A program made the translations under genes and the position numbers. DNA of 64,000 nt from Ectocarpus siliculosus (lineage: Eukaryota > Sar > Phaeophyceae > Ectocarpales > Ectocarpaceae), in contig FN649748.1 in the NCBI GenBank assembly GCA_000310025.1, positions 2,183,428 to 2,247,427 of the forward strand. The letters are read 5' to 3'. Below, piece after piece: positions 12,103 through 53,700 of this stretch. How positions within the stretch are numbered: the stretch's first letter is position 1; every line of letters begins with the position of its first letter. Below the pieces are notes generated by a model that was not told the DNA's origin, searched no databases, and saw nothing but the letters and a program-made list of their open reading frames with translations.

Positions 12103-12426
12103 ATGGACTACGCTCCAGATACACCTACGGCCGGCTACGAGCGCTACGTGAGCGAGAGCGAGAGCACGGACGGAGAAGGCGATGTCTCTGGCGGGCAGAG
12201 AAAATCGAAAGTGCCAGCAGCAGCAACGGCCGGATTTGAGACAGCAGCACCGGGCGAGGGAGAGCGCAACAACGAGAGCCACCGCCACGGCAGGGTATCT
12301 CTTGCTTCTCCGGCGTCGACGGCTTCGATCTTCTCGAGACTGGCCGCCAGCTGGAAGAAGGGGAGCAACAGTGCCAGGGGTACCAAGCGGACGAACGGCA
12401 TAACACACCGTCGCGACAACAAACAC

Positions 12427-12461
<35 letters not shown>

Positions 12462-15400
12462 TCCGGGTGCAGCGTCACGGGGGGGGAGAGGGGGAGAAGA
12501 GATGTGGAGAGACATACAAGAAGGGAGCCTTCGAGGCGGAGATTACGGGGAGGGGTCGGGTCGAGGGTTCAGCGGGGAGAGTGGAAGCAGGTGAGCGCGC
12601 GTTATAGGGGATGCATAGGTGTACAGCATGTAAGGTGTCCGTAGATTTTGTTATCATGGCCTCGTGCGAGTCGTTCCCTCCGCAGACAAACCACGATATC
12701 GCCGGAGGAATAAGCTTTGTGGCTCAGGCCCCAGTAGGTGCGCACATGCAACGGCTGTGTGCATCGCGACTGCCGCGTTTGTGTTGTATTAATAAATAGT
12801 GACAGCGAACAGTTACGCATGGGAGTGCATGAATGTGTCCAAATATACCGTATTGAAGTTGCCTCTGACAACACACAACAGCCTCGCATTCTGCCTTACA
12901 AACCAAGAGTATGCCATCCTGTGGTTCCGCACTCCGTATGCTACAGCGAACTGCAATATGTACGTAACCACGATCGCCGGTTGACGGTCTTAACGCCAAA
13001 AACATTGTTTAGGACTGGGGAATATGATTCGGATGTCTCGTTATACATCTATCCCCCCGTGGTGCAGATGCAGGTCCCATACTAGTCGATATCGTTGTTG
13101 TTTTTTTATGAAAACCAGTGCAGATCACGTCGGTCGTGATGGACCCCCGGCAATTTCGATATTTTGTCGTTGACCCAGTAGAGAACTACAGGGGATGTAT
13201 TGTAAAATGTAAGTTACCTACACAGATGTTTTTGTACTTAGCACCAGCTGGCATCACTGGTATAAATCATCAGTGTATAGACTTAAAAAGACTCGAAATA
13301 AGTCCAGTACCCAGCCGGTTTCCCTCCACTCACTGAAAAGACTCCACCACATCCCGTTCGACTGTGGGTATATCTCGAATGGGTAGTATTTCTGTGTGTG
13401 TTTTTATTATTCCTTAATTTCACTACAATACAATACATATTCCAAGTATGTAGCCTTCGCAGGGATGTTAAGCTTGGTTTCAGAAGGGAGTACGGGGTGG
13501 GGATAGGGATAGGGAAAGGGATATGAAACCCCTTGTCTGGCTCCTAGATTAACCATCTTTAATTCGTCGCGAAAACGGTCCGGTCATTGTCACCACTCCT
13601 CCATGACAACACAAGCATTTCTCGACACTTCTGGCTGCGGTCGAGATCCAAGATCTCCCCAACCCTGTGAACAACCTCTCCCAGATGCTCTATCGAGATG
13701 AACTTCAGCGCTGAAGCTCTGATCGTTGAAATTCTCCTTGACAAACTCCGAGATAGATAGACCCTGCTCAGCGCCACGGTTTCCAAGATCATCGCTGGGG
13801 CAACCGTCGTACATCGTGAATCCAATTTTTGCCACCCCCTCACAATGCTACCTACCACCTGCCGCCGTACTCCACTGCGCTTGTGGTGATGCAGCGAACA
13901 TTTTTCAACTTTTTCCAAGTGGGCCGGGCTCATGATTTTGTGCGCTATGAGCTGTGCGACGGGCGTTGAAGAAACAGCACTTTCCCTTGTGACGAGACAG
14001 CGTTTCTCTGCCTCAAAAGCGAAAAATGGCGTACACACTACAGTATCTACATTACGCGTGTAGAATAACATGCTAGAAGCTCCCAGCTTCCAGCTGCTTA
14101 TGCAAGCCGCGCTCTGTGTGAGCAGCACCAGCGCTGACCAGGGCCTTGAACAGAGAATCTCGGCGACAATCTTTTCAGAGAGGGCCGGCAACAAGTTGTT
14201 TAGGAGGCTTTCGATTGTCTGGACGTTTTTTCTGCGCGTCACGATGCCGCCTGCACCACAGGTGTAAAGCCGCGTTTAAGTGTAACGGTCTGTCCTGCAT
14301 TCGTCACGCTCAACGCACACCCTGCGATAGTTCATCCCGTCATATCTAAGGCGGATTTTGGCACATAACCTGTTTTTTGTTGGCACGTCTGCTCCCGTTG
14401 TCTTTGTTATCGTGCTCTGTTATTGAACCAACAACCAACGAAGGGCGACCGCGTCCGCCGCCAATGCCGGTGTGGGTGTTGTCCGCGATGCGCTCGCGGC
14501 CGGAGTTTCTTCAGTCGGGAAGTCTTCTTCCGGGCTGAAAGGGTGAGCAACTCGAAAACTTGCAGAATAAACCTTTTAAAAGGTGTATGACCCGCAGGGA
14601 AGGTGCCAAACACCATGACCCTTTACCCTGTCTAGGGTTGCCCCCCTTGGCGTATTCTATGCGCTGGTAGAGCGATGAGAATCGCTTTGCCGTTTGGGAA
14701 CACTCCCAGTTCCCGGTTTACTTTGCCGGTGGCAATAGAGAGCCGAAGGCCACGTGTCGAAGCTATGGTACCTTGAGAGAGCTATGGTATACCCTTGTCC
14801 TCTTCGTGATGTCGTTTGGGACATCCGACAGAGATGGACGGACAGAGAGAGAAAAAAAACCAACAGATGGGGGGGGGGAATGGGAAACGCGTTGAACGAA
14901 AGGTCCGCCTAGTTTGTTTGTTTTTTTGTCTCCGATGCTGCATCCATGGGTCTTTTGGCGTAGATCTCCCCACCTGACGCACTGGCGCAAGAGCAGCGCA
15001 ACTTTGAGACTCACATCCGTTTGTTTTGTTCTCTCTGTCTCTCTCCCTCCCTCCCCCCTGCCTCCGTTTCTACATCCTTCTCAATTTTCCCCTCCGGGTT
15101 GCTCTTTCTTGTTTATCTTCCGCCAAAGACTGAAAACATCACTATTGAAGGAAGACGGGGACACCATTCCCCCGAGAACCCTCGCGTCAGACGCCGGCGC
15201 CTCCCCGGCTGCCGGAAATAAGGGAAGGGGATTGTGGGACGAAGCCGCCGCTGGGGACTTGGCGGCGCTAGCCGCTGCTCTCACGCCAGGAGGAGAAGGA
15301 GATGTGCACGCCTGCAACGGGGACGGTAAGACGGAGGTAGCGGGCGAGTTATTGAGGAGGGTAATTGTCGGGGGTGTCGGCAAGAAGCAGAGAGCGTCAG

Positions 15401-15878
15401 CGGGAGCAGTACAAGTTTTGCTTCGCATGTATCTAGCAATATGGCGCTTCTTGTGTTTGAACTTGGGGTGCGAACCTCTTGTCGCTTCGTTTCCCACGCC
15501 CTCGCCCCCCCCCTTCCCGCCCCGATTTTCGACGATGATGAGACGTTTAACACCGCCCCCGCCCCCGTGGGAAACGACAGGGTGGACGGCGCTCCACAGC
15601 GCCGCGCACGCGGGCCATGGGCTGGCAGTGATCTCCCTGCTGGTCGGTAGCGGCGCTTCCCCGGCCTCCGTCGCCCGGCGAGGCTACACACCACTGCACT
15701 CGGCGTGCATGAGGGGGAGGTGGCATTCGGCGGCGGCGCTGCTGGCGTTGGGGGCTGACGCAAACGTGCGGGCGGATGATCAGGTGCGGACGTGCTCGCT
15801 GCGCATGGTTGTGTGTTTGTTGATTAAAGTCGACCGCCAGCTGACCAGTGCGAGCGGGTAAACTCAAAGTCCCTGATA

Positions 15879-15912
<34 letters not shown>

Positions 15913-17399
15913 CTTTGGTTTGCATCGACCGTGCTAACCGGCTGATCGATGACAAGACGACTGTGCTTTGCTGTGTGTTGGTGTTTCTTAAGTTAGCATT
16001 GGCCTCACCAACCGGCTGACCAATGAAAGCATGTCGGGCTTAAAAAATGCGTGATCAAACGATCTTCTAGACGTTTTTCATTGGGCCCCCCCCCCGCAGC
16101 GGGGGCACGGAAAAATGTTGGACCACAGGGCCCAGTCTCCGGACTCGAATTACTTGCAAAAGGACAAAAGTGCTTACGTGTACATACGTTTCTTGATATT
16201 TCGCTAACCTTGTGGACCGGCTCACCAATAAAAGTACGTCGGTATTGTGCATACGACGAGACAAAGCACCCGAACCCGATTTCCTGCGCGTATATGGCTG
16301 TGTGTGCGGTGGCTGTGCATGGGAACACAACAACTCGACGGCTTGCGCCTAATACGTTGGCTGGCAGAAGAGAGAAGGCGGCCGGTGTGTAGACGTGCGT
16401 CCGGGAGGGGAAGCAGTTGCAAGCGCAGGCAGCGGGGGTGGGCGCGCCGACAGCAAAGAAGATTGCCGCTCAGTCTCTCTGGCGGCCAAGAGGGGGGATG
16501 CGTTTTGGTATTTTCCAGCATGACGAGCGAATGTGTGTGCGCGCATGCGGCGGTGTGAGTAGCAAGCGCTGCGGCCGTGTTCCTTACCGGCTATTGCTAC
16601 CACTGATGACTACTGTTGTCCAGTATTTGCTGTGTCCCGACCACCCACCCCTCCCCTCCTTCCCCCCTTTTCTTCCAGCGTACCCCGTTGCACTTCGCAT
16701 GCGAAGCCGGGTCGCCGGAGTGCGCGAAGGAGCTCTTGCAGGCGGACGCATCGCCGAACGTGTCCGACCAGGACGCCAGGACGCCCCTCCACTTCGGTGA
16801 GAATGTCGTGACGCAATAGCAGCTAACCGTGGCGACGATTTCGTCGTTTCGTTTTAGTGTCGGTGTCTTTTTTTGCCGTGGTTGTGGGAGGGGATGTCTT
16901 GAGGCAGTTGTAAGGCTGATGTATGGCGCTGGTGATGGCGGTTAAGACATGTGTTTTCAGCGTTTTTTTTTGTGATGAGGAATATAACAAAATAAAGAAA
17001 AACGCTCAATAGTAGAATCGAGGGGCTGGTGTTCCCCCACCCCCGGCCGGATTCCAGCCACTTTTCCCTTGGGTCTCCAAGAAAGGTCTCACGAGACCTC
17101 AAGGTTTATATGTCACGCTCTGCATTCCATGGTTCATCAAGCCCTCAAACACACGACTCTTTCCGTGAGCAATGGCGGCCTTCGGACGTTCGTATGCGAA
17201 AATAGTACCACGTTGCGGACCAGAGCATGTACGTGGGCACATGCGCGCACGCACGATAACGAGTGTATATACGGCACACATCCAAGCGTTCGCCCACAGG
17301 CGGTTGGGTGCATTCCCGCATCGGCAACCAAATCGAGCGGCTTGTACAGAAGCGTTGCGCCCCCTCCATCTTCTCGTGCTCCCGCCTGTCCTGAAGCTC

Positions 17400-17454
<55 letters not shown>

Positions 17455-20400
17455 CTCGCGACGACACAACAGCCTGCATCGACGGGTCTACCGAGTGCGT
17501 CCGCCTACTCCTCTCCGCCGGCGCGTCCCACTTCCCCCCGGACGCCTGGGGCCGTGACCCCGCCGCCGTCGCGAGGCAGCTCGATCGCGCGGGGCCCCTG
17601 AAGCTCCTCGAAGCCGCCGCCGCCGCGGGCGGCAAGGGCAGCAGCAGCAGCAGGAGCAGCTCCAGGAAGAAGCCGGGGAGAAGAAACAAGCATGGCCGCG
17701 GCGGGTCGTCGGCTTGGGCCGGTCGGGGGGGAGGCGGGGGGGGCGATGCGAGTGGCGGGGACGCCGACGCCGCTGCTGCTGCTGCGGCAGAGGGAGTTGA
17801 CGACGAAGAGGCGGAGAGGGTCATAGGGGAGGGCGGGCAAAAAGGAGCGACGGCGGTCGTGGGGAACCGTTGGGTGGTGATGAACGAGAGCGGACGCATG
17901 CTGGAGAGAAGGAGCGGCAAGGTGGGGCTTCTTTATGAAATGGGAGGCGTACCTTCGGTGGGGAGCGTGGGGGGGAGTCGTGGTCATGCGACCGGTAGTC
18001 CTTAGACCATTGGCTTCGCCCGGCGCGCGCCGCGTTCAAGGTTGCACAGTAGCAGCACATCTACAAGTAGGAGCGCTGCTTGCTTTTAGTTTTTTTTCGG
18101 TTCCTGGTACGCAGCCGAGCTAGCGATGCAGCCCCTACTTGTTAGACATCACGTTGTTGTACACCGCTCAAAAAAAGGCCGACGCATGCACGCATGCCAC
18201 GTTGCTGCTCGCGACAGCAATGTCTTTCCGTGGGTGCTTGCTGTTTTAGTGCTGTAGCGACCATGACCGCGATGCTGTCATGTTTTCCTCCTCAGCGGGG
18301 TGTGCTTTTCGCGAGGGCGGATTCTTTGTCCGGTGCCACGATCGGGTCCTGCCACCCCGGGGGCTGAGCACAAGCATGCACTAACAACTAGCTTAGCCTG
18401 CTTTGTTGACTCCGTTCGGCGTGAACTCCTGTGTCTTCGGATCAAGGTGGCGCTGTTCAAGTCGATGGCGGCCGCCGTGGACTGGGCGAACGGCCTGACC
18501 CTCGACAGGGAGATCACCAGCGGGTCGTTCCAGGTCGCGGAGGTGGTGCCCGACATGCGCAAGGCCTTCGAAAAAGAGGTGCGTGTTTCTGGACGTTACA
18601 TTGCGTTACCGGCTGTGGCTAGTCTACTGTGCACACGGGGGCTCGTTTGGTGTACTTTATTGTGTGGTCTCCTTTATCTGTTGATGCTGTTGCCGTGTTT
18701 GCTCCTAACGGCCAGCGGATTTTTTTTTTTGCGCATCTGTGAGGTTTTCCCTTCGCTGCTCGAAGGGTTTCGGGACAGGAATTTGCGCGAGGTTTCCAGC
18801 CGTTCCCCCGTCAAAACTCGGTGTTGCTTCGCACAGAACATACTTGCCGTACCTTTGTCGTTTCCGCGCGACGCTTGCGTGGGACCTCGCGGCGACCCGT
18901 GGCTGTTATAATTCATGCCCACCCAGCGAAAATCTTACTATCTTCGCCTCCGGATTCCAAGAGATACTGGGGCTTCTGGTCTGAAAAGGCACGACACGAC
19001 CGCGCAATGGCACTGAGTACGCCCCCTCTTCTATATCCAAACGCTGTAGTTTCTACCGAACCTCGTCTTCGGGCGTTTTTCTTTGGACTCGAAAATGGAC
19101 TAAGGCAGGCGTCGTGAAACAATGGACATGCCGCCGCGGCTGCGGTCCAAAATTCTCACATCGCTGCTGTCTGTAGCAGCTTCCCGTGCAATGTTATCCA
19201 GACGCTTGTGCGTACACGTAGTCCAAAATTCTCGCATCGCTGCTGTCTGTAGCAGCTTCCCGTGCAATGTTATCCAGACGCTTGTGCGTACACGTAGTCC
19301 AAAATTCTCGCATCGCTGCTGTCTGTAGCAGCTTCCCGTGCAATGTTATCCAGACGCTTGTGTGTACGCGTAGTCGTCGGATTGGGGGGGGGGATGAGAA
19401 TAGGCTGTGTCTGGGCAGAACTCGAGCTCAACGTATTTTGTCGACACGGGGGTACCATCAAAAGTCTCATGCTTTGCAATCCTGCGTTTTCTTCTTCCCA
19501 ATCTCGAACAAATCGGGACCGTCAGGTCTTGTTCGAGATCACCGGCGGGGGCACCGTGAGCGAGGAGGAGGAGGAGGAGAGGCAGGACCCGCAGTGGACT
19601 CGCTACCGGCGGCAGCAGGCGGCGGCTCGCAAGGGGGCGAGCGGCGGGGGCGGCGACCGACACAGGAGGGGAGCGTGGACGGCCGCTGCCCAAAGGTGCG
19701 TCCCGTTCCAAGTAGTCCAAGCACACCAGAAGTTTTTGGAGTCCCGTCATGAATCTCGTACAAAAACAAAATTTTCAGGGGGGGTTGGGTTGTGGGGTCA
19801 TCAGGGTGCGTCCCAACCCGGCGGTGTTATTCTTTCTGTTTCAATGTTAAGTGTGTGACGAGTTCGTGAGACACTCCTCTGTACTGCTGTTTCCCCACCG
19901 AGTTGCGTTTTTTTTTTTTTACATTTTGTCGCGCATGCCCACGCGCGTCTAACCATCAAGAGAATGAAGCCAGGAGGACCCGTGGCTTTGCTCTCCGTGT
20001 ATATGGCCGCTATAAACTGAACCAGCTCACAATATCCTCTCGAAACGACAGGCGGGACGAGGACGAGGCCCGGGCGATGGTGGCGGCGACCGCCAACAGG
20101 CTGAGAGAGGCCCAGCAGGAGGCCGACATGCACCGGCAGAAGGCAGCGTCTCTCGAGCGCGCCCTGGAAGCCGTGCTGAAGGAGTGCGACGATATTGTCA
20201 AGGCCGCCGAGGCCGCGGGGGCAAGGGGCTTGGCGGAGGTTTCGGCGACGGGGGAAGAGGAGGAGGAGGAGGAGGAGGAGGAGGAGGAGGGGTGTCCGGT
20301 GTCTACCGCTGCCGCCGACGCCGCTGCTGCGCCTTCGATGTTGCTCGGGGTTGACAGTCCGGCCGCCGGTTCTTCTGATGCTTCGCTGCCTCTGTTGTTG

Positions 20401-21771
20401 CTGGGCGAGGGCGACCCGTCCCAGCAAGCAGCGGGGGAAGCCGAACCCTCTCTGCTGAATTTCGACGGCGGCGACGGCGAAGAAGAGGCACGCCCCACGA
20501 GCCCATCGCCGTCGGCTGGAGCAGGCGCACCGGCTTGCGGCGAACCGGAACCTGCAGAAGGGACGGAAGGAGCCGAATCTAGCGGTTCGGAGGAAGGGTC
20601 GTCCTGTGGAGAAGACGACGGGGCGTCGGATGAGGAAGCGCAGCTCGATTCGTCCTCCGAGCAAAGCGCTGCTGAACCTTCGACGATACTCGGGGTCGAT
20701 GACGACGCTGCTGATGGCGATTCTGGTGACGGCGATGCGGCTTCCGCTCCTTCCTTGTTGCTGGGAGTCGGCGATCCCGACGCTGCCGGCAGCAGTGGAG
20801 CTTCTGCCATCAGTGCGCCTTCCTTGTTGCTGGGAGTTGACGACCCCGATGCTGCTGAAGCTTCTGCTTCGGCGCCTTCGTTGTTGCTGGGAGTTGAAGA
20901 CCAGTCCCGCCAGCAGCCATCGCCGCAGGGGGAAGCAGGAGGAGCGGGGTCCTCTCTGCTTGATTTCGGTGATAACACCGGCGACCAACATTCCACTACC
21001 GCGTCTGCTGCCAACGGCACCGGAGGCAACGATGGTGGCGAGGACGGCGGCGAGGCAGCGGTGGTGGAGAGGCTCGCCGCGTGGCTCTCGGGGCTGAAGA
21101 TCCGGGAGCCGGACGCCTCGCGGTACGCCGGCAGACTTGTCGCTGACGGCTTCGACAGCGAAGAGGTACGTGGGGTTTTCGGGGGAGTCCGACGACGCAC
21201 AGAGCGTTTGAGCCTTGAAATCTATCCCGCGGTCCATGCATGCTACGCCCCCCCCCCTCCCAAACGACGCTCGCCAGAAATGTTTGACAACACCATGCAG
21301 GGTTGTGTACAAGGAGCTGACAACCCCCGACGAGGAAGCATGAGAAATTCACTCGGCTCGTGAGAACAGTCAGCCTGCCTGAGTCATGCTATTTTATTTT
21401 TGGTATGATAGGAGTATGATGTATTAAGAGTACCGAGGTAAGTTTTCACGAGGTGTATATAGAGAGCGCGCTCAATGCTTGGGGAGTACGGTAATGCGTG
21501 GATAATTGGCTGCACGAAGCACCACACATTCGTCTGACGTCTACCTGACTCTGTTTCAACTCAACCCTGCCTTGCACCCGTTGATCACACTGTTCGCACT
21601 CTGACCGATACGTTTTTCGCTCCCCGTCGTGTGTTGCTCCCGTCTCTACCGCAACAAAAAAACACGGCTCGTGCGCATCAGGCGTTGCGCGGCGTCCGTG
21701 AAGAGGAGCTCTTGCAGTACGGCATGAAGAAGGGCCACGCCAGGCTCGTCGTTAGGCTCCTTGAGCTGTGA
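12103..21771 (+). CDS. Ankyrin-repeat, coiled-coil, SAM-domain protein with repeated clathrin-box-like motifs, 9 exons
   Basis: Exons 12103-12590, 15129-15325, 15581-15783, 16679-16796, 17473-17921, 18447-18578, 19526-19695, 20052-21165 and 21682-21771 join in phase to 986 aa. The first join spans a 2.5-kb intron and rests only on phase and splice sites, so the start is less certain; the ATG context (AACCATGG) is good. Residues 1-160 are low complexity with an Ala run. Residues about 198-372 hold about five ankyrin repeats (GWTALHSAA, GYTPLHSAC, RTPLHFAC, ARTPLHFAC). Residues 373-585 have basic and Gly-rich stretches and are unrecognised. Residues 586-642 form a coiled coil. Residues 650-915 are acidic and contain repeated PSLLLGVDDPD-like units. 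A C-terminal SAM domain (923-986) runs from VVERLAAWLSGLKI to GHARLVVRLLEL and is split by the last intron. The architecture suggests a scaffold or adaptor, perhaps in membrane traffic (inference). Confidence 0.85.
13297..13420 (+). repeat. Dispersed repeat, copy A
   Basis: About 115 bp matching, in inverted orientation, the copy at 61231-61337. Shared segments include AGCCGGTTT, CTCCACTCACTGAAAA, CCACCACATCCCGTTCGACT, GGTATATCTCGAATGGGTAG and the tail TTATTATTCCTTAAT. It lies in the first intron of the ankyrin gene. The core is also present in both arms of the 2-407 palindrome and at about 45517. A transposable-element end is likely; no coding capacity was seen next to it. Confidence 0.8.
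15879..15906 (+). repeat. (GT)n microsatellite
   Basis: Fourteen uninterrupted GT units in intron 3 of the ankyrin gene. Confidence 0.95.
17401..17452 (+). repeat. Poly-C plus (CT)n tract before a splice acceptor
   Basis: A C-run followed by about 20 TC units ends about 20 bases upstream of the exon 5 acceptor (17472) of the ankyrin gene. It probably serves as that acceptor's polypyrimidine tract. Length variation here could affect splicing (inference). Confidence 0.9.
19145..19372 (+). repeat. 76-bp minisatellite, three tandem copies
   Basis: Units start at 19145, 19221 and 19297, each beginning GTCCAAAATTCTC and ending near CGCTTGTGCGTACACGTA. They differ at only a few bases (for example CTCACATC versus CTCGCATC in unit 1, and GTGTACGCGTA in unit 3). 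The array sits inside intron 6 of the ankyrin gene. Near-identity implies recent amplification. Confidence 0.95.
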
Positions 21772-50700: not shown

Positions 50701-53700
50701 GACAGGGGCAACGGTCTTGCAAGGCCAACCCCCATATATTGTACCTTGAAAGTTCAGCTCCATGCTGCACTCCAGGTTTTCAACGTAGAGGTGTTTACTT
50801 CGTCTTCCCCATCTCGCGGGAATCGTTATCCTTGCAAGTCGACAGTTTCAGACAGCAGGGCCTACTTTTTTACGTTGGGGGGTTGTGCGTTCGCACTGAA
50901 ACTGTTTGTATGACACGGGCAGCTGCTGACGAAATGTGCTGTTCCAGCCAGCAGCATCGGCTGCACCGCAGAAGATGCAGCTGCTAGTTGTGGTACACGG
51001 GACGAAACCGACCCACCTGAGTGCTTTCTTTCGAAGGTCTTTGTGCCTGCCTGCCAAACGCCTGGCCCTCCTTACACGCTCTTGTCTTCCCAACCTGCCC
51101 GCGCGGCCGACGCAGGCCCCGTGCGACGATGAGAGGATTGCCCGTGAGCTTGAGGAGGCTGACCGGGCTCAGGCTGAAGAATTTTCCCAGCAAGCGAAGA
51201 AGGATGAGGACCTGGCGCGAGAGCTGCAGCGTCTAGACGAAGCCGAGGCTGAGGAGAAGGCTGCCGCGGACGCGATAGCTCGCACTAGGCGGCCCCGGGC
51301 AAAGAGCAAGGGATCCGGAGGGCGGAGCGGCCATGATGCCAGAGGCGGCGGCGAGGGCGGCGGCAGCGATGCAGGCAAGGGGAGCGGTGGTGGTGCAAAG
51401 AATCGGGGGCGGTTGCCGACGGGAGGTTGCCGGCGAAGCGGTTCTGCTTCCTTGCCACCGGCGCTTGCAGCCGACGGTTTCGGCGGCGCGGAAATGGAGG
51501 GGGTGGAGGGCACGTGCACGGGGGGCGGCGGCAGTCGACCGAGTGGGAGCGGGGGCAGCGGGGCTAGCAAGGCTGCCTCATCTTCATCGTCGGAAACGAA
51601 GGATACACAGATGAAGAGGATGAAGACGCAGCAGGAGGAGAAGAACAAGAAGACCGAGAAGAGTGAGACAGGGGACGTCGACGGCGGTGCTCGGCGTTAC
51701 CTGGACTCTACAGGTCTGACGTCAGATGAGGAAAGCATCGGCGACGATGAAACCAACGACGCAGATTATGTAGACGCTGAGGAGAAGAGAGAGGTTAGGA
51801 GGAAGAGGGTGAGGTCCACGCCTCCCAAGCATGGACCTAGAGCATCAAGCGCAAGCCCTTCCACTAGCACAAGCAGCCCTTCTGCTCGCGCTCGTACGAG
51901 CAACCCGACCGTTCGCCCGGCCAGCAGCCCTGGTGATGGCGGCGTTGGCGGCGTCGATGTTCGGCAGGGGAGAGGTGGAGGAGCGTCCGGTTCTACAACG
52001 GAGAACGACGGCTGCCGGGGTGATGACGATAGCGTCCTAGGCGGTACTGCCAGAGGGGCCGAGAGAAGGAGCGGGGGCGGTGCCAACGGCGGAGGCGGTG
52101 GACCACTTGTCAACGGCAACGGCAATGTCAGTACCGCTTCAAGCATCGGCGGGTTCACACCTACTGTTGCTGTCTCCGACTCTGCCGTCTCATCTGCAGC
52201 CGGACGCGTAGCTTCTGTCAGTTCCAGCAGTGCACGGGTTGCGGCGAAGTCGAGTCACTTAGATCTCGGAATTGATCCAGACCAAAAGGTGGAAAAGGAA
52301 GAAGATTCGCGGGACCCCGGCAGGAGCGAGGTCATTAGGGCTGGAAGCGGAGGCGGACAGAGTGGCAAAAGAAAGGGGGCCGGAGGCAGTCCAGAGGGAG
52401 GGGTGAACGATACGAACGGTTGTGAGTTCAGCAATGCGAACGGCAGCAGTCAGCGATCGCAGACCCCTGATTCTGGGTCTCGATTGAAACAGACCAAAAA
52501 CACGAAACCGCGGCAAAGCAATGGCGGCGGGAGTGCCAACGGGGGCAAAGGTGGCAGCGGGAGTGTCAAGGGGGGCAAAGGGAGTGCCAACGGGGGAAAA
52601 GGTGGCAGCGGGAGTGTCAACGGGGGCAAAGGTGGCAGCGGTAGCGCGAGTCGCAGGAACGAAGAGACCGGTACCAAGCGACGACCGGATGCGCCTGGAT
52701 TTGCTTCAAACGCAATCAAGACCAAGACTACTCCGAAGCCGGGCAAGACCGGTAAGGGCGGTGGGTCTGGTGCCATTGGCGGTGGTAGCCATCACGCCGT
52801 TAGCGGCGGTGTGAGCGAGTGCATTGTCAGCGGGAGCGTCCGGAAGCCGCTGGTGACGCCCGGAATTCCTCCAAGCTCGGACAATACCAAGATTACTACT
52901 ACGAAGCGGTGCAAGACGGGCAAGGGCGGTGAGGCCGGTACCGTTGGCGGCGGCAGCAGCAGCAGGCCGTCGATGTCACCTGGATTTGCCTCAAGCGCAG
53001 ATAACCCTGATACCACTCTGAAGCAGGGCAAGAGCGTCAAGGACGGTGAGGGCGGTACCCTTCGAGGTGGCAGCCATGCCGGGGGCAAGGGTGGCAGCCA
53101 CAGCGGGAGAAACAGGGACGAAGAGACGGGTGCCAAGCGGCCGCCAGAGACGCGCAGCGATGACACCGGTAGCGGTGGTAGCGGCGAGCGCGCCAACCGG
53201 GTCGTCGTCCACAAGCAGCGTCCATCAAACACGGACGAGGCCAAGATTATCACGAAGCAAGACGGCGGCGGTGGTGGAAACGGCAGTGGCGGCGATACCG
53301 AGGATGAATTTAGCCTATTGGCGAACAACCGAGGAGTAGCAGGAGGAGGAGTAGAGCAAGCCAGCGGGCCGGGTGGTGGAAGCAAGAAGAACGGCGATAG
53401 GGAAATCGATGAGCCGCCGAACACGGAGGATTCAGACGTGATTCGTGACGATGACCCGGAGGACGACATCTGCGTGTTGAACATTTCCGTTGACGGACGT
53501 GCGGAGAGCATCCTTTCCCCCAACAGAGCGGCAACGCCCCAGGTAGGGCCAGAGGTAGCAGCGGGTGTGGCGTTCAAGCCGATGGCGTCAGAATCGACGT
53601 TGGTCCGGGCGTCGAAGGCAGCCACCACGGCAGCGGTGAAAACGGCGTCTCGCCGCCGGCACGTGATGGGGGGAAAGCAGCCCAAGAAAACAAAGGAACA

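What the first reader, a model, noticed from the sequence alone, without database searches (positions are those of the whole stretch)
12103..21771. Ankyrin, coiled-coil and SAM protein carrying an array of clathrin-box-like motifs
Between the coiled coil and the C-terminal SAM domain, an acidic tail of about 265 residues repeats S-L-L-x-(V/F)-(D/E) units at least seven times: SMLLGVD, SLLNFD, STILGVD, SLLLGVG, SLLLGVD, SLLLGVE, SLLDFG. Several fit the clathrin-box consensus L-hydrophobic-x-hydrophobic-acidic. The DNA of neighbouring units (20751 and 20818) is nearly identical, so the array is growing by duplication. I know of no described protein that combines ankyrin repeats, such an array and SAM. 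It could be a clathrin-recruiting scaffold.
Basis: partly seen in the sequence, partly recalled or inferred. Interest (0 to 1): 0.75.

Follow-up and report, generated by a model that had tools for sequence, protein, structure and literature searches.

The report
Ankyrin-SAM protein with clathrin-box-like repeats

Summary
A nine-exon plus-strand model (12103-21771; eight GT-AG introns, frame kept) gives 986 residues: four Pfam ankyrin stretches, a helical segment, a 258-residue acidic tail and a divergent C-terminal SAM domain. The tail has seven [LMI]Lx[VF][DEG] motifs (0.02 expected on shuffling) plus one degenerate unit; 30 of its 33 bulky hydrophobic residues lie in these units. No other open stretch in 317,091 residues of six-frame background (window and 13 same-genome loci) has two such motifs within 215 residues. 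Three units are recent near-copies; the rest have diverged.

Clathrin binding is plausible, not shown. Four of eight units fit L-phi-x-phi-[DE]; only LLNFD fits the stricter consensus. Two adaptor-like genes of the same genome have single LLDLE and LLDLD boxes; clathrin residues 89, 91 and 96 are kept. Against it: five of seven motifs are [LI]LGV variants, and no orthologue could be searched. Nearest precedents: AP180 (about 23-residue repeats of weak motifs; 19-24 in five of seven steps here), yeast Sla1p (SAM-fold domain controlling a clathrin box) and ANKS1/Caskin. I call it a new variant of a known kind.

The parts
12103..12590 (+). Exon 1: start codon, N terminus of low complexity with poly-Ala run (residues 110-120)
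   Evidence: GT donor, phase, best codon score in frame
15129..15325 (+). Exon 2: start of ankyrin region
   Evidence: GT-AG, in-frame codon score; Pfam Ank on the spliced protein
15581..15783 (+). Exon 3: ankyrin repeats
16679..16796 (+). Exon 4: ankyrin repeats
17473..17921 (+). Exon 5: last ankyrin repeats, basic cluster (residues 395-412), start of unassigned region 465-565
18447..18578 (+). Exon 6: unassigned region (no Pfam family; no credible PDB relative)
19526..19695 (+). Exon 7: unassigned region, charged
20052..21165 (+). Exon 8: helical/coiled-coil segment (20053-20238), poly-Glu (20254-20289), acidic motif tail (20287-21060), first half of SAM (from 21064)
20335..20355 (+). Motif unit 1 SMLLGVD
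   Evidence: fits L-phi-x-phi-[DE]
20383..20412 (+). Degenerate unit SLPLLLLGEG
   Evidence: does not fit the tested clathrin consensuses
20449..20466 (+). Motif unit SLLNFD
   Evidence: only unit that fits L(L,I)(D,E,N)(L,F)(D,E)
20680..20700 (+). Motif unit STILGVD
   Evidence: I at first position; also the one strict SUMO-interaction-like match
20752..20772 (+). Motif unit SLLLGVG (recent copy)
   Evidence: lacks the acidic residue
20821..20841 (+). Motif unit SLLLGVD (recent copy)
   Evidence: fits L-phi-x-phi-[DE]
20878..20898 (+). Motif unit SLLLGVE (recent copy)
   Evidence: fits L-phi-x-phi-[DE]
20950..20970 (+). Motif unit SSLLDFG
   Evidence: four of five strict clathrin-box positions, G for the acid
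21682..21771 (+). Exon 9: second half of SAM domain and stop codon
   Evidence: AG acceptor, frame; SAM matches

Best explanation
A scaffold that recruits clathrin by many weak contacts. The ankyrin repeats would hold a client or membrane-linked partner (inferred). The helical segment and the SAM domain would oligomerise the protein; the SAM could also mask the motifs until the protein joins a coat, as the SAM-fold SHD2 domain of yeast Sla1p masks its box (inferred). The acidic, probably unstructured tail would offer seven to eight motifs, in steps of 16-24 residues with one 77-residue gap, to the clathrin heavy-chain terminal domain (inferred). Each motif alone is expected to bind weakly, so avidity would come from repeat number, as in AP180, multiplied by clustering. 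Shown here: the gene model, domains, array, its non-random character, a clathrin heavy-chain exon with three pocket residues kept, and LLDLE and LLDLD boxes in two other adaptor-like genes. Not shown: any binding, oligomerisation or location.
For: Seven motifs against 0.021 expected. 30 of 33 bulky hydrophobic residues of the tail sit in the eight units, among 52 acidic and 3 basic (K, R, H) residues. Four units fit L-phi-x-phi-[DE] against 0.067 expected, and LLNFD fits the stricter consensus, 0.0077 expected; both consensuses are as given in PMC5694535 (passages seen). In the same genome an adaptin-type hinge frame has GGGDLLDLEDIF (L013) and the VHS gene region has AAPLLDLDGGSEDPL (L024), close in setting to EPSLLNFDGGDGEEE here. 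A clathrin heavy-chain exon in L011 aligns to solved terminal domains (3.5e-22) with Q89, F91 and K96 kept and K98 changed to R (that these line the box pocket is recalled). Motif cores show summed pS 0.58 and pN 0.31, the eight codons after each motif 0.72 and 0.55. Precedents, passages seen: AP180, 12 repeats of about 23 residues with weak DLL/DLF motifs (PMC5694535); Sla1p, SAM-fold domain hiding the clathrin box LLDLQ (PMC9499636).
Against: Five of the seven motifs are [LI]LGV[DEG], not the LLDL[DE] form of the two adaptor-like genes; two of the seven lack the acidic residue. Short hydrophobic-acidic motifs are promiscuous. No orthologues could be compared; the pS/pN comparison uses non-independent pairs. 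The ENTH gene found (L012) shows no L-phi-x-phi-[DE] box in its recognised tail frames. No lipid- or cargo-binding module other than ankyrin was recognised, and a basic cluster at residues 395-412 could be a nuclear signal.
Confidence: 0.44

Rival explanations
1. The array is a multivalent short-linear-motif tail for another partner (another coat or appendage, a signalling protein or a lineage-specific receptor), and the resemblance to the clathrin box is convergent.
For: The commonest form, PS(L/M)LLGV(D/E), departs from the LLDL[DE] boxes of the two adaptor-like genes. PSLLLGV followed by GA occurs only twice in the held genome, both in this gene (reversed control 1), so this exact form is not a shared adaptor code here.
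Against: LLNFD and the LLGVD/E forms fit published clathrin consensuses, and the spacing resembles AP180. [quoted passage not shown] the SUMO core fits six of eight, counted under the next rival. No other motif class was scored.
Confidence: 0.31
2. The units are SUMO-interaction motifs (hydrophobic-hydrophobic-x-hydrophobic beside acidic residues) in a tandem array.
For: Six of eight units contain psi-psi-x-psi (0.365 expected), most next to acidic residues; ILGVDDD in the unit at 20680-20700 fits a strict form; a basic, NLS-like cluster exists at residues 395-412.
Against: The strict form with three acidic/Ser residues after the core fits one unit only, which 340 of 20,000 shuffles also reach. 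Two units have F at the fourth position, which suits the clathrin box and not the SUMO motif (SUMO motif definition recalled). No SUMO-pathway domain in the protein.
Confidence: 0.1
3. The tail is a low-complexity expansion by slippage and unequal exchange, with little or no function of the motifs.
For: Three units are near-identical copies; the same exon and exon 1 hold GGA and CAG runs.
Against: The diverged units keep the motif while codons and spacers differ; no comparable pair of motifs in 317,091 residues of six-frame background.
Confidence: 0.15

Closest known systems
AP180/CALM (clathrin assembly tail)
   Same: Largely unstructured tail with repeated weak leucine motifs; 12 repeats of about 23 residues in AP180 (PMC5694535, passages), steps of 19-24 residues in five of seven here
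   Different: No ANTH domain; motif is SLLxV/F-D and not DLL/DLF; ankyrin and SAM modules instead
Yeast Sla1p
   Same: SAM-fold domain (SHD2) and a clathrin box in one protein; SHD2 polymerises and hides the box LLDLQ in the cytosol (PMC9499636, passage)
   Different: One variant box, not an array; no ankyrin repeats and several SH3 domains in Sla1p (recalled), none here; no homology shown
ANKS1A/B (Odin, AIDA-1) and Caskin ankyrin-SAM scaffolds
   Same: N-terminal ankyrin repeats with SAM downstream; SAM profile hits ANKS1A/B and Caskin chains
   Different: Odin has six ankyrin repeats, two tandem SAM and a PTB domain (PMC9499636, passage); here one SAM, no PTB, and a clathrin-box-like array; no orthology shown
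VHS/GAT (TOM1-like) and adaptin-type genes of the same genome
   Same: Leucine-acidic box in a Gly/Ser/acidic linker (L024 AAPLLDLDGGSEDPL; L013 GGGDLLDLEDIF)
   Different: One box each seen, canonical LLDL[DE]; no array
SMAP ArfGAPs
   Same: [quoted passage not shown] the box sequence LLGLD, close to LLGVD, is recalled and could not be checked
   Different: ArfGAP enzyme; single box (recalled)

Membership tests
Clathrin-box protein (terminal-domain ligand) | At least one L-phi-x-phi-[DE] motif in an accessible, unstructured region | tested here: met
   Four units fit (0.067 expected by shuffling); disorder only inferred from composition, 85% D,E,G,S,P,A,Q,T,N
Clathrin-box protein (terminal-domain ligand) | Stricter form L(L,I)(D,E,N)(L,F)(D,E) | tested here: met
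   One unit of eight, LLNFD; LLDFG fits four of five positions; the other six do not fit
Clathrin-box protein (terminal-domain ligand) | Leucine-dependent binding to clathrin | not testable with these tools
   needs a binding assay
AP180/CALM | N-terminal ANTH domain | tested here: not met
   No ANTH in Pfam scan of the whole protein
AP180/CALM | Repeated DLL/DLF motifs | tested here: not met
   Repeated motif is SLLxV/F-D
Sla1p-type | SAM-fold domain and clathrin box in one protein | tested here: met
   SAM by profile, boxes by pattern
Sla1p-type | SH3 domains (recalled) | tested here: not met
   Only ankyrin families reach E 1 in the whole-protein scan
ANKS/Caskin-type ankyrin-SAM scaffold | Ankyrin repeats | tested here: met
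   Pfam Ank 8.3e-29, four stretches
ANKS/Caskin-type ankyrin-SAM scaffold | SAM domain | tested here: met
   Below Pfam cut-off alone (18.5 of 23 bits); 40% identity over 55 residues to a SAM of the genome that passes it; profile hits SAM structures, best 1.2e-10
ANKS/Caskin-type ankyrin-SAM scaffold | Tandem SAM plus PTB (ANKS1; PMC9499636) or SH3 (Caskin; recalled) | tested here: not met
   No PTB or SH3 in the whole-protein scan; one SAM found, but a second as divergent as the first could escape Pfam
SUMO-interaction array | psi-psi-x-psi followed by acidic/Ser residues | tested here: inconclusive
   Core in 6 of 8 units, strict form in 1

The most novel reading that the evidence does not exclude
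A clathrin scaffold of a type I did not find described: an ankyrin-repeat client receptor whose SAM-clustered, AP180-like tail of LLGVD/LLxFD boxes nucleates clathrin without a recognisable ENTH, ANTH, VHS or adaptin module, its motif number still changing by duplication.
Probability: 0.21. Interest if true: 0.68.

Novelty: new variant of a known kind. Interest (0 to 1): 0.4.

Why it matters
Clathrin adaptors are best known from animals, fungi and plants (recalled); the two library searches that joined clathrin with brown algae or stramenopiles listed nothing on point. If true, the AP180 principle, many weak motifs on a flexible tail, arose on an ankyrin/SAM frame, and the mix of recent and old units would give a natural series for asking how motif number sets avidity and how a neighbouring SAM domain gates it. 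If the partner is not clathrin, the array is still a clear, testable multivalent motif tail.

Tried and rejected
Orthologues: no collection of eukaryotic genomes is on hand; one scan of viral contigs with the helical segment matched 87 stretches by pattern, none a relative. Genome contigs (prokaryotes) and metagenome contigs were not scanned. Paralogues: tail plus SAM gave 7 matches, 2 of them its own exons, the best other being the L003 SAM at E 0.0026; the middle region gave 5, 4 of them its own, the other E 0.02; ankyrin repeats gave 166 matches, own exons included, with 150 of 489 candidates scored, so they do not define a family.

A PH-like reading of residues 465-565 was considered and dropped: no Pfam family (residues 441-653 gave only two hits, E 0.02 and 0.025, both below cut-off) and one PDB hit, E 0.17, in the charged/helical part. 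NCBIfam hits of the ankyrin part were all far below cut-off and reflect ankyrin repeats in general. Arrestin box [LI][LI]GxL: 0 units. The ANTH search of the genome found nothing, but nothing rang in the controls either, so this says nothing on absence. Six further adaptin-type loci (L014-L019) were read in part, with a composition filter: 13 frames held a clathrin-box-like match, of which I judged by eye only LVPVE (L019) to lie in a tail-like stretch; none had an array. tRNA and Rfam scans of the window found nothing.

Limits: exon borders were chosen for frame and GT-AG, so frame consistency is partly built in; the codon score is the separate check. The background includes the window, all six frames, and two locus pairs that overlap (L007/L012, L008/L013). 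The adaptin-type gene on C37 has N runs of 2,940 and 6,041 bases between its N-terminal and hinge parts, and the VHS exon and LLDLD frame lie about 3.6 kb apart, so both are tied together by position only.

The Sla1p passage raised the clathrin odds slightly (0.42 to 0.44) and lowered the novelty odds (0.22 to 0.21), the odds of the unnamed-partner rival (0.33 to 0.31) and the interest (0.42 to 0.40).
Full report
WHAT IS THERE. On the plus strand, nine exons from 12103 to 21771 join with GT-AG at all eight introns and unbroken frame into 986 residues. In 9 of 9 exons the predicted frame has the highest leave-one-out codon score of the three frames, and exon GC (62-74%) exceeds intron GC (49-57%). 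Order: a low-complexity N terminus with a poly-Ala run; ankyrin region about 198-385 (Pfam Ank 8.3e-29, four stretches); a basic cluster 395-412; a region 465-565 without recognised family; a helical, possibly coiled-coil segment about 587-648; poly-Glu; the motif tail 665-922; and SAM 924-986.

SAM. The whole-protein Pfam scan did not list SAM at E up to 1. The isolated C terminus matches SAM_1 at E 0.0027, 18.5 bits against a cut-off of 23, and a SHIP2/EphA2 SAM fusion and an ANKS1B chain at 2.7e-5 and 0.0043 in the PDB (the best single stretch of the first has an independent E of 0.34). It is 40% identical over 55 residues to the SAM of a same-genome frame (L003) that passes the Pfam cut-off at 34.4 bits. 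A profile of the two hits SHIP2, Caskin, ANKS1A/B and Eph SAM structures, best 1.2e-10. I take the domain as real though divergent.

THE ARRAY. Seven [LMI]Lx[VF][DEG] motifs occur against a mean of 0.021, maximum 2, in 20,000 shuffles of the tail. Of 33 bulky hydrophobic residues in the tail, 30 lie in the eight units; the tail has 52 acidic and 3 basic residues of 258. Across 317,091 residues of six-frame translation of the window and 13 same-genome loci, no other open stretch had two such motifs within 215 residues. A genome-wide DNA pattern for PSLLLGV followed by GA gave two hits, both in this gene; the reversed control gave one. Unit starts 681, 697, 719, 796, 820, 843, 862 and 886 give steps of 16, 22, 77, 24, 23, 19 and 24 residues. 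Units 820, 843 and 862 are near-identical in DNA; the others differ more in codons. Summed over the 21 pairs of seven units, pS is 0.58 and pN 0.31 in the eight-codon core, against 0.72 and 0.55 in the eight codons that follow. Pairs are not independent, and two cores (EPSLLNFD, GSSLLDFG) are aligned by their ends and so one residue out of step at the start; this is only an indication that the motif is kept.

FIT TO THE CLATHRIN BOX. PMC5694535 (passages read) gives L-phi-x-phi-[DE] and an earlier form L(L,I)(D,E,N)(L,F)(D,E). The first fits 4 of 8 units; a fifth, ILGVD, has I in place of the first L. The second fits 1 of 8, LLNFD; LLDFG fits four of its five positions. LLGVG and LLDFG lack the acid and one unit is degenerate. 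The arrestin box fits none. The SUMO-interaction core fits 6 of 8, its strict form 1.

SAME-GENOME CONTROLS. I read tail frames of three adaptor-like genes. The adaptin-type gene on C37 has Adaptin_N matches at 42-45 kb, a hinge frame in L013 with GGGDLLDLEDIF and an ear match of E 1.0e-3, 26.4 bits, just below the cut-off of 27.6 (the same search also rang in one of 14 control genomes); its best PDB match, the gamma-1 ear, is not significant (E 0.32). Runs of N separate the parts. The VHS gene on C17 (2.2e-10) is followed about 3.6 kb on by a frame with AAPLLDLDGGSEDPL; a GAT match on a joined piece is below cut-off (4.1e-4, 21 of 31 bits) and absent from the single exons. The ENTH gene on C16 (1.5e-14) has PDLLSGDDPF but no L-phi-x-phi-[DE] in its recognised tail frames. 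So 2 of 3 show one canonical box. In six further adaptin-type loci, read in part, 13 frames had a match and I judged one (LVPVE, L019) to be tail-like; none had an array. The clathrin heavy chain is present (two H_link matches), and a terminal-domain exon keeps Q89, F91 and K96, with R for K98 (that these line the box pocket is recalled). The machinery and canonical boxes exist, but among the sequences read I saw the LLGVD form only in this protein.

HOW IT MOST LIKELY WORKS. I favour a clathrin-recruiting scaffold at 0.44: ankyrin repeats hold a partner, SAM and the helical segment cluster the protein, and the tail binds terminal domains by many weak contacts, as AP180 does with 12 repeats of about 23 residues (PMC5694535, passage). 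The SAM next to the boxes has a precedent: in yeast Sla1p a SAM-fold domain, SHD2, polymerises and hides the clathrin box LLDLQ from free clathrin in the cytosol (PMC9499636, passage). Binding, oligomerisation, masking, location and partner are all inferred. Rivals: another linear-motif partner (0.31), neutral low-complexity expansion (0.15), SUMO-interaction array (0.10).

WHAT IS KNOWN. Library searches: clathrin box with ankyrin repeat and SAM domain, one paper (passages opened: Odin and Sla1p are treated apart, and Odin is given as six ankyrin repeats, two SAM, one PTB); clathrin, brown alga, adaptor and endocytosis, 15 papers, 10 listed (passages of PMC3473312 opened: no stramenopile, ankyrin or clathrin-box mention); ankyrin, SAM, clathrin and ANKS1A, 3 papers (the other two by listing only); ankyrin, SAM and Ectocarpus, 1 paper on PARPs (listing only); clathrin, ankyrin repeats, SAM and stramenopiles, none; SUMO motif with clathrin box, none; LLGLD with clathrin, none. 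None that I saw describes such a protein; subscription journals are mostly missing. PMC4644846 (passages) states that SMAP proteins carry a clathrin box that binds heavy chain. PMC13386808 (passages) marks a clathrin box in TOM1 family proteins, which fits the VHS control.

VERDICT. It is a new variant of a known kind: known modules and known principles (AP180 repeats, a Sla1p-like SAM beside clathrin boxes, an ankyrin-SAM frame) in a combination that I did not find described.

Noticed in passing
19145-19375: Three near-perfect copies (98%) of a 76-bp tandem repeat inside intron 6 of the gene.
   Followed up: no
17410-17451: (CT)21 run shortly upstream of the exon 5 acceptor; may act as polypyrimidine tract and vary in length.
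   Followed up: no
12428-12461 and 20253-20290: In-frame CAG and GGA runs coding poly-Ala and poly-Glu in exons 1 and 8; likely length-variable.
   Followed up: no
19801-21348 (minus strand): 515-residue open frame antisense to exon 8; probably a by-product of the GC-rich low-complexity sense frame.
   Followed up: no
   Followed up: partly
L003 817-1875 (minus strand): SAM domain joined in one open frame to what looks like the start of a protein kinase domain (kinase judged by eye).
   Followed up: no
52522-52641: Overlapping tandem repeats of 21, 30 and 51 bp; coding potential not examined.
   Followed up: no
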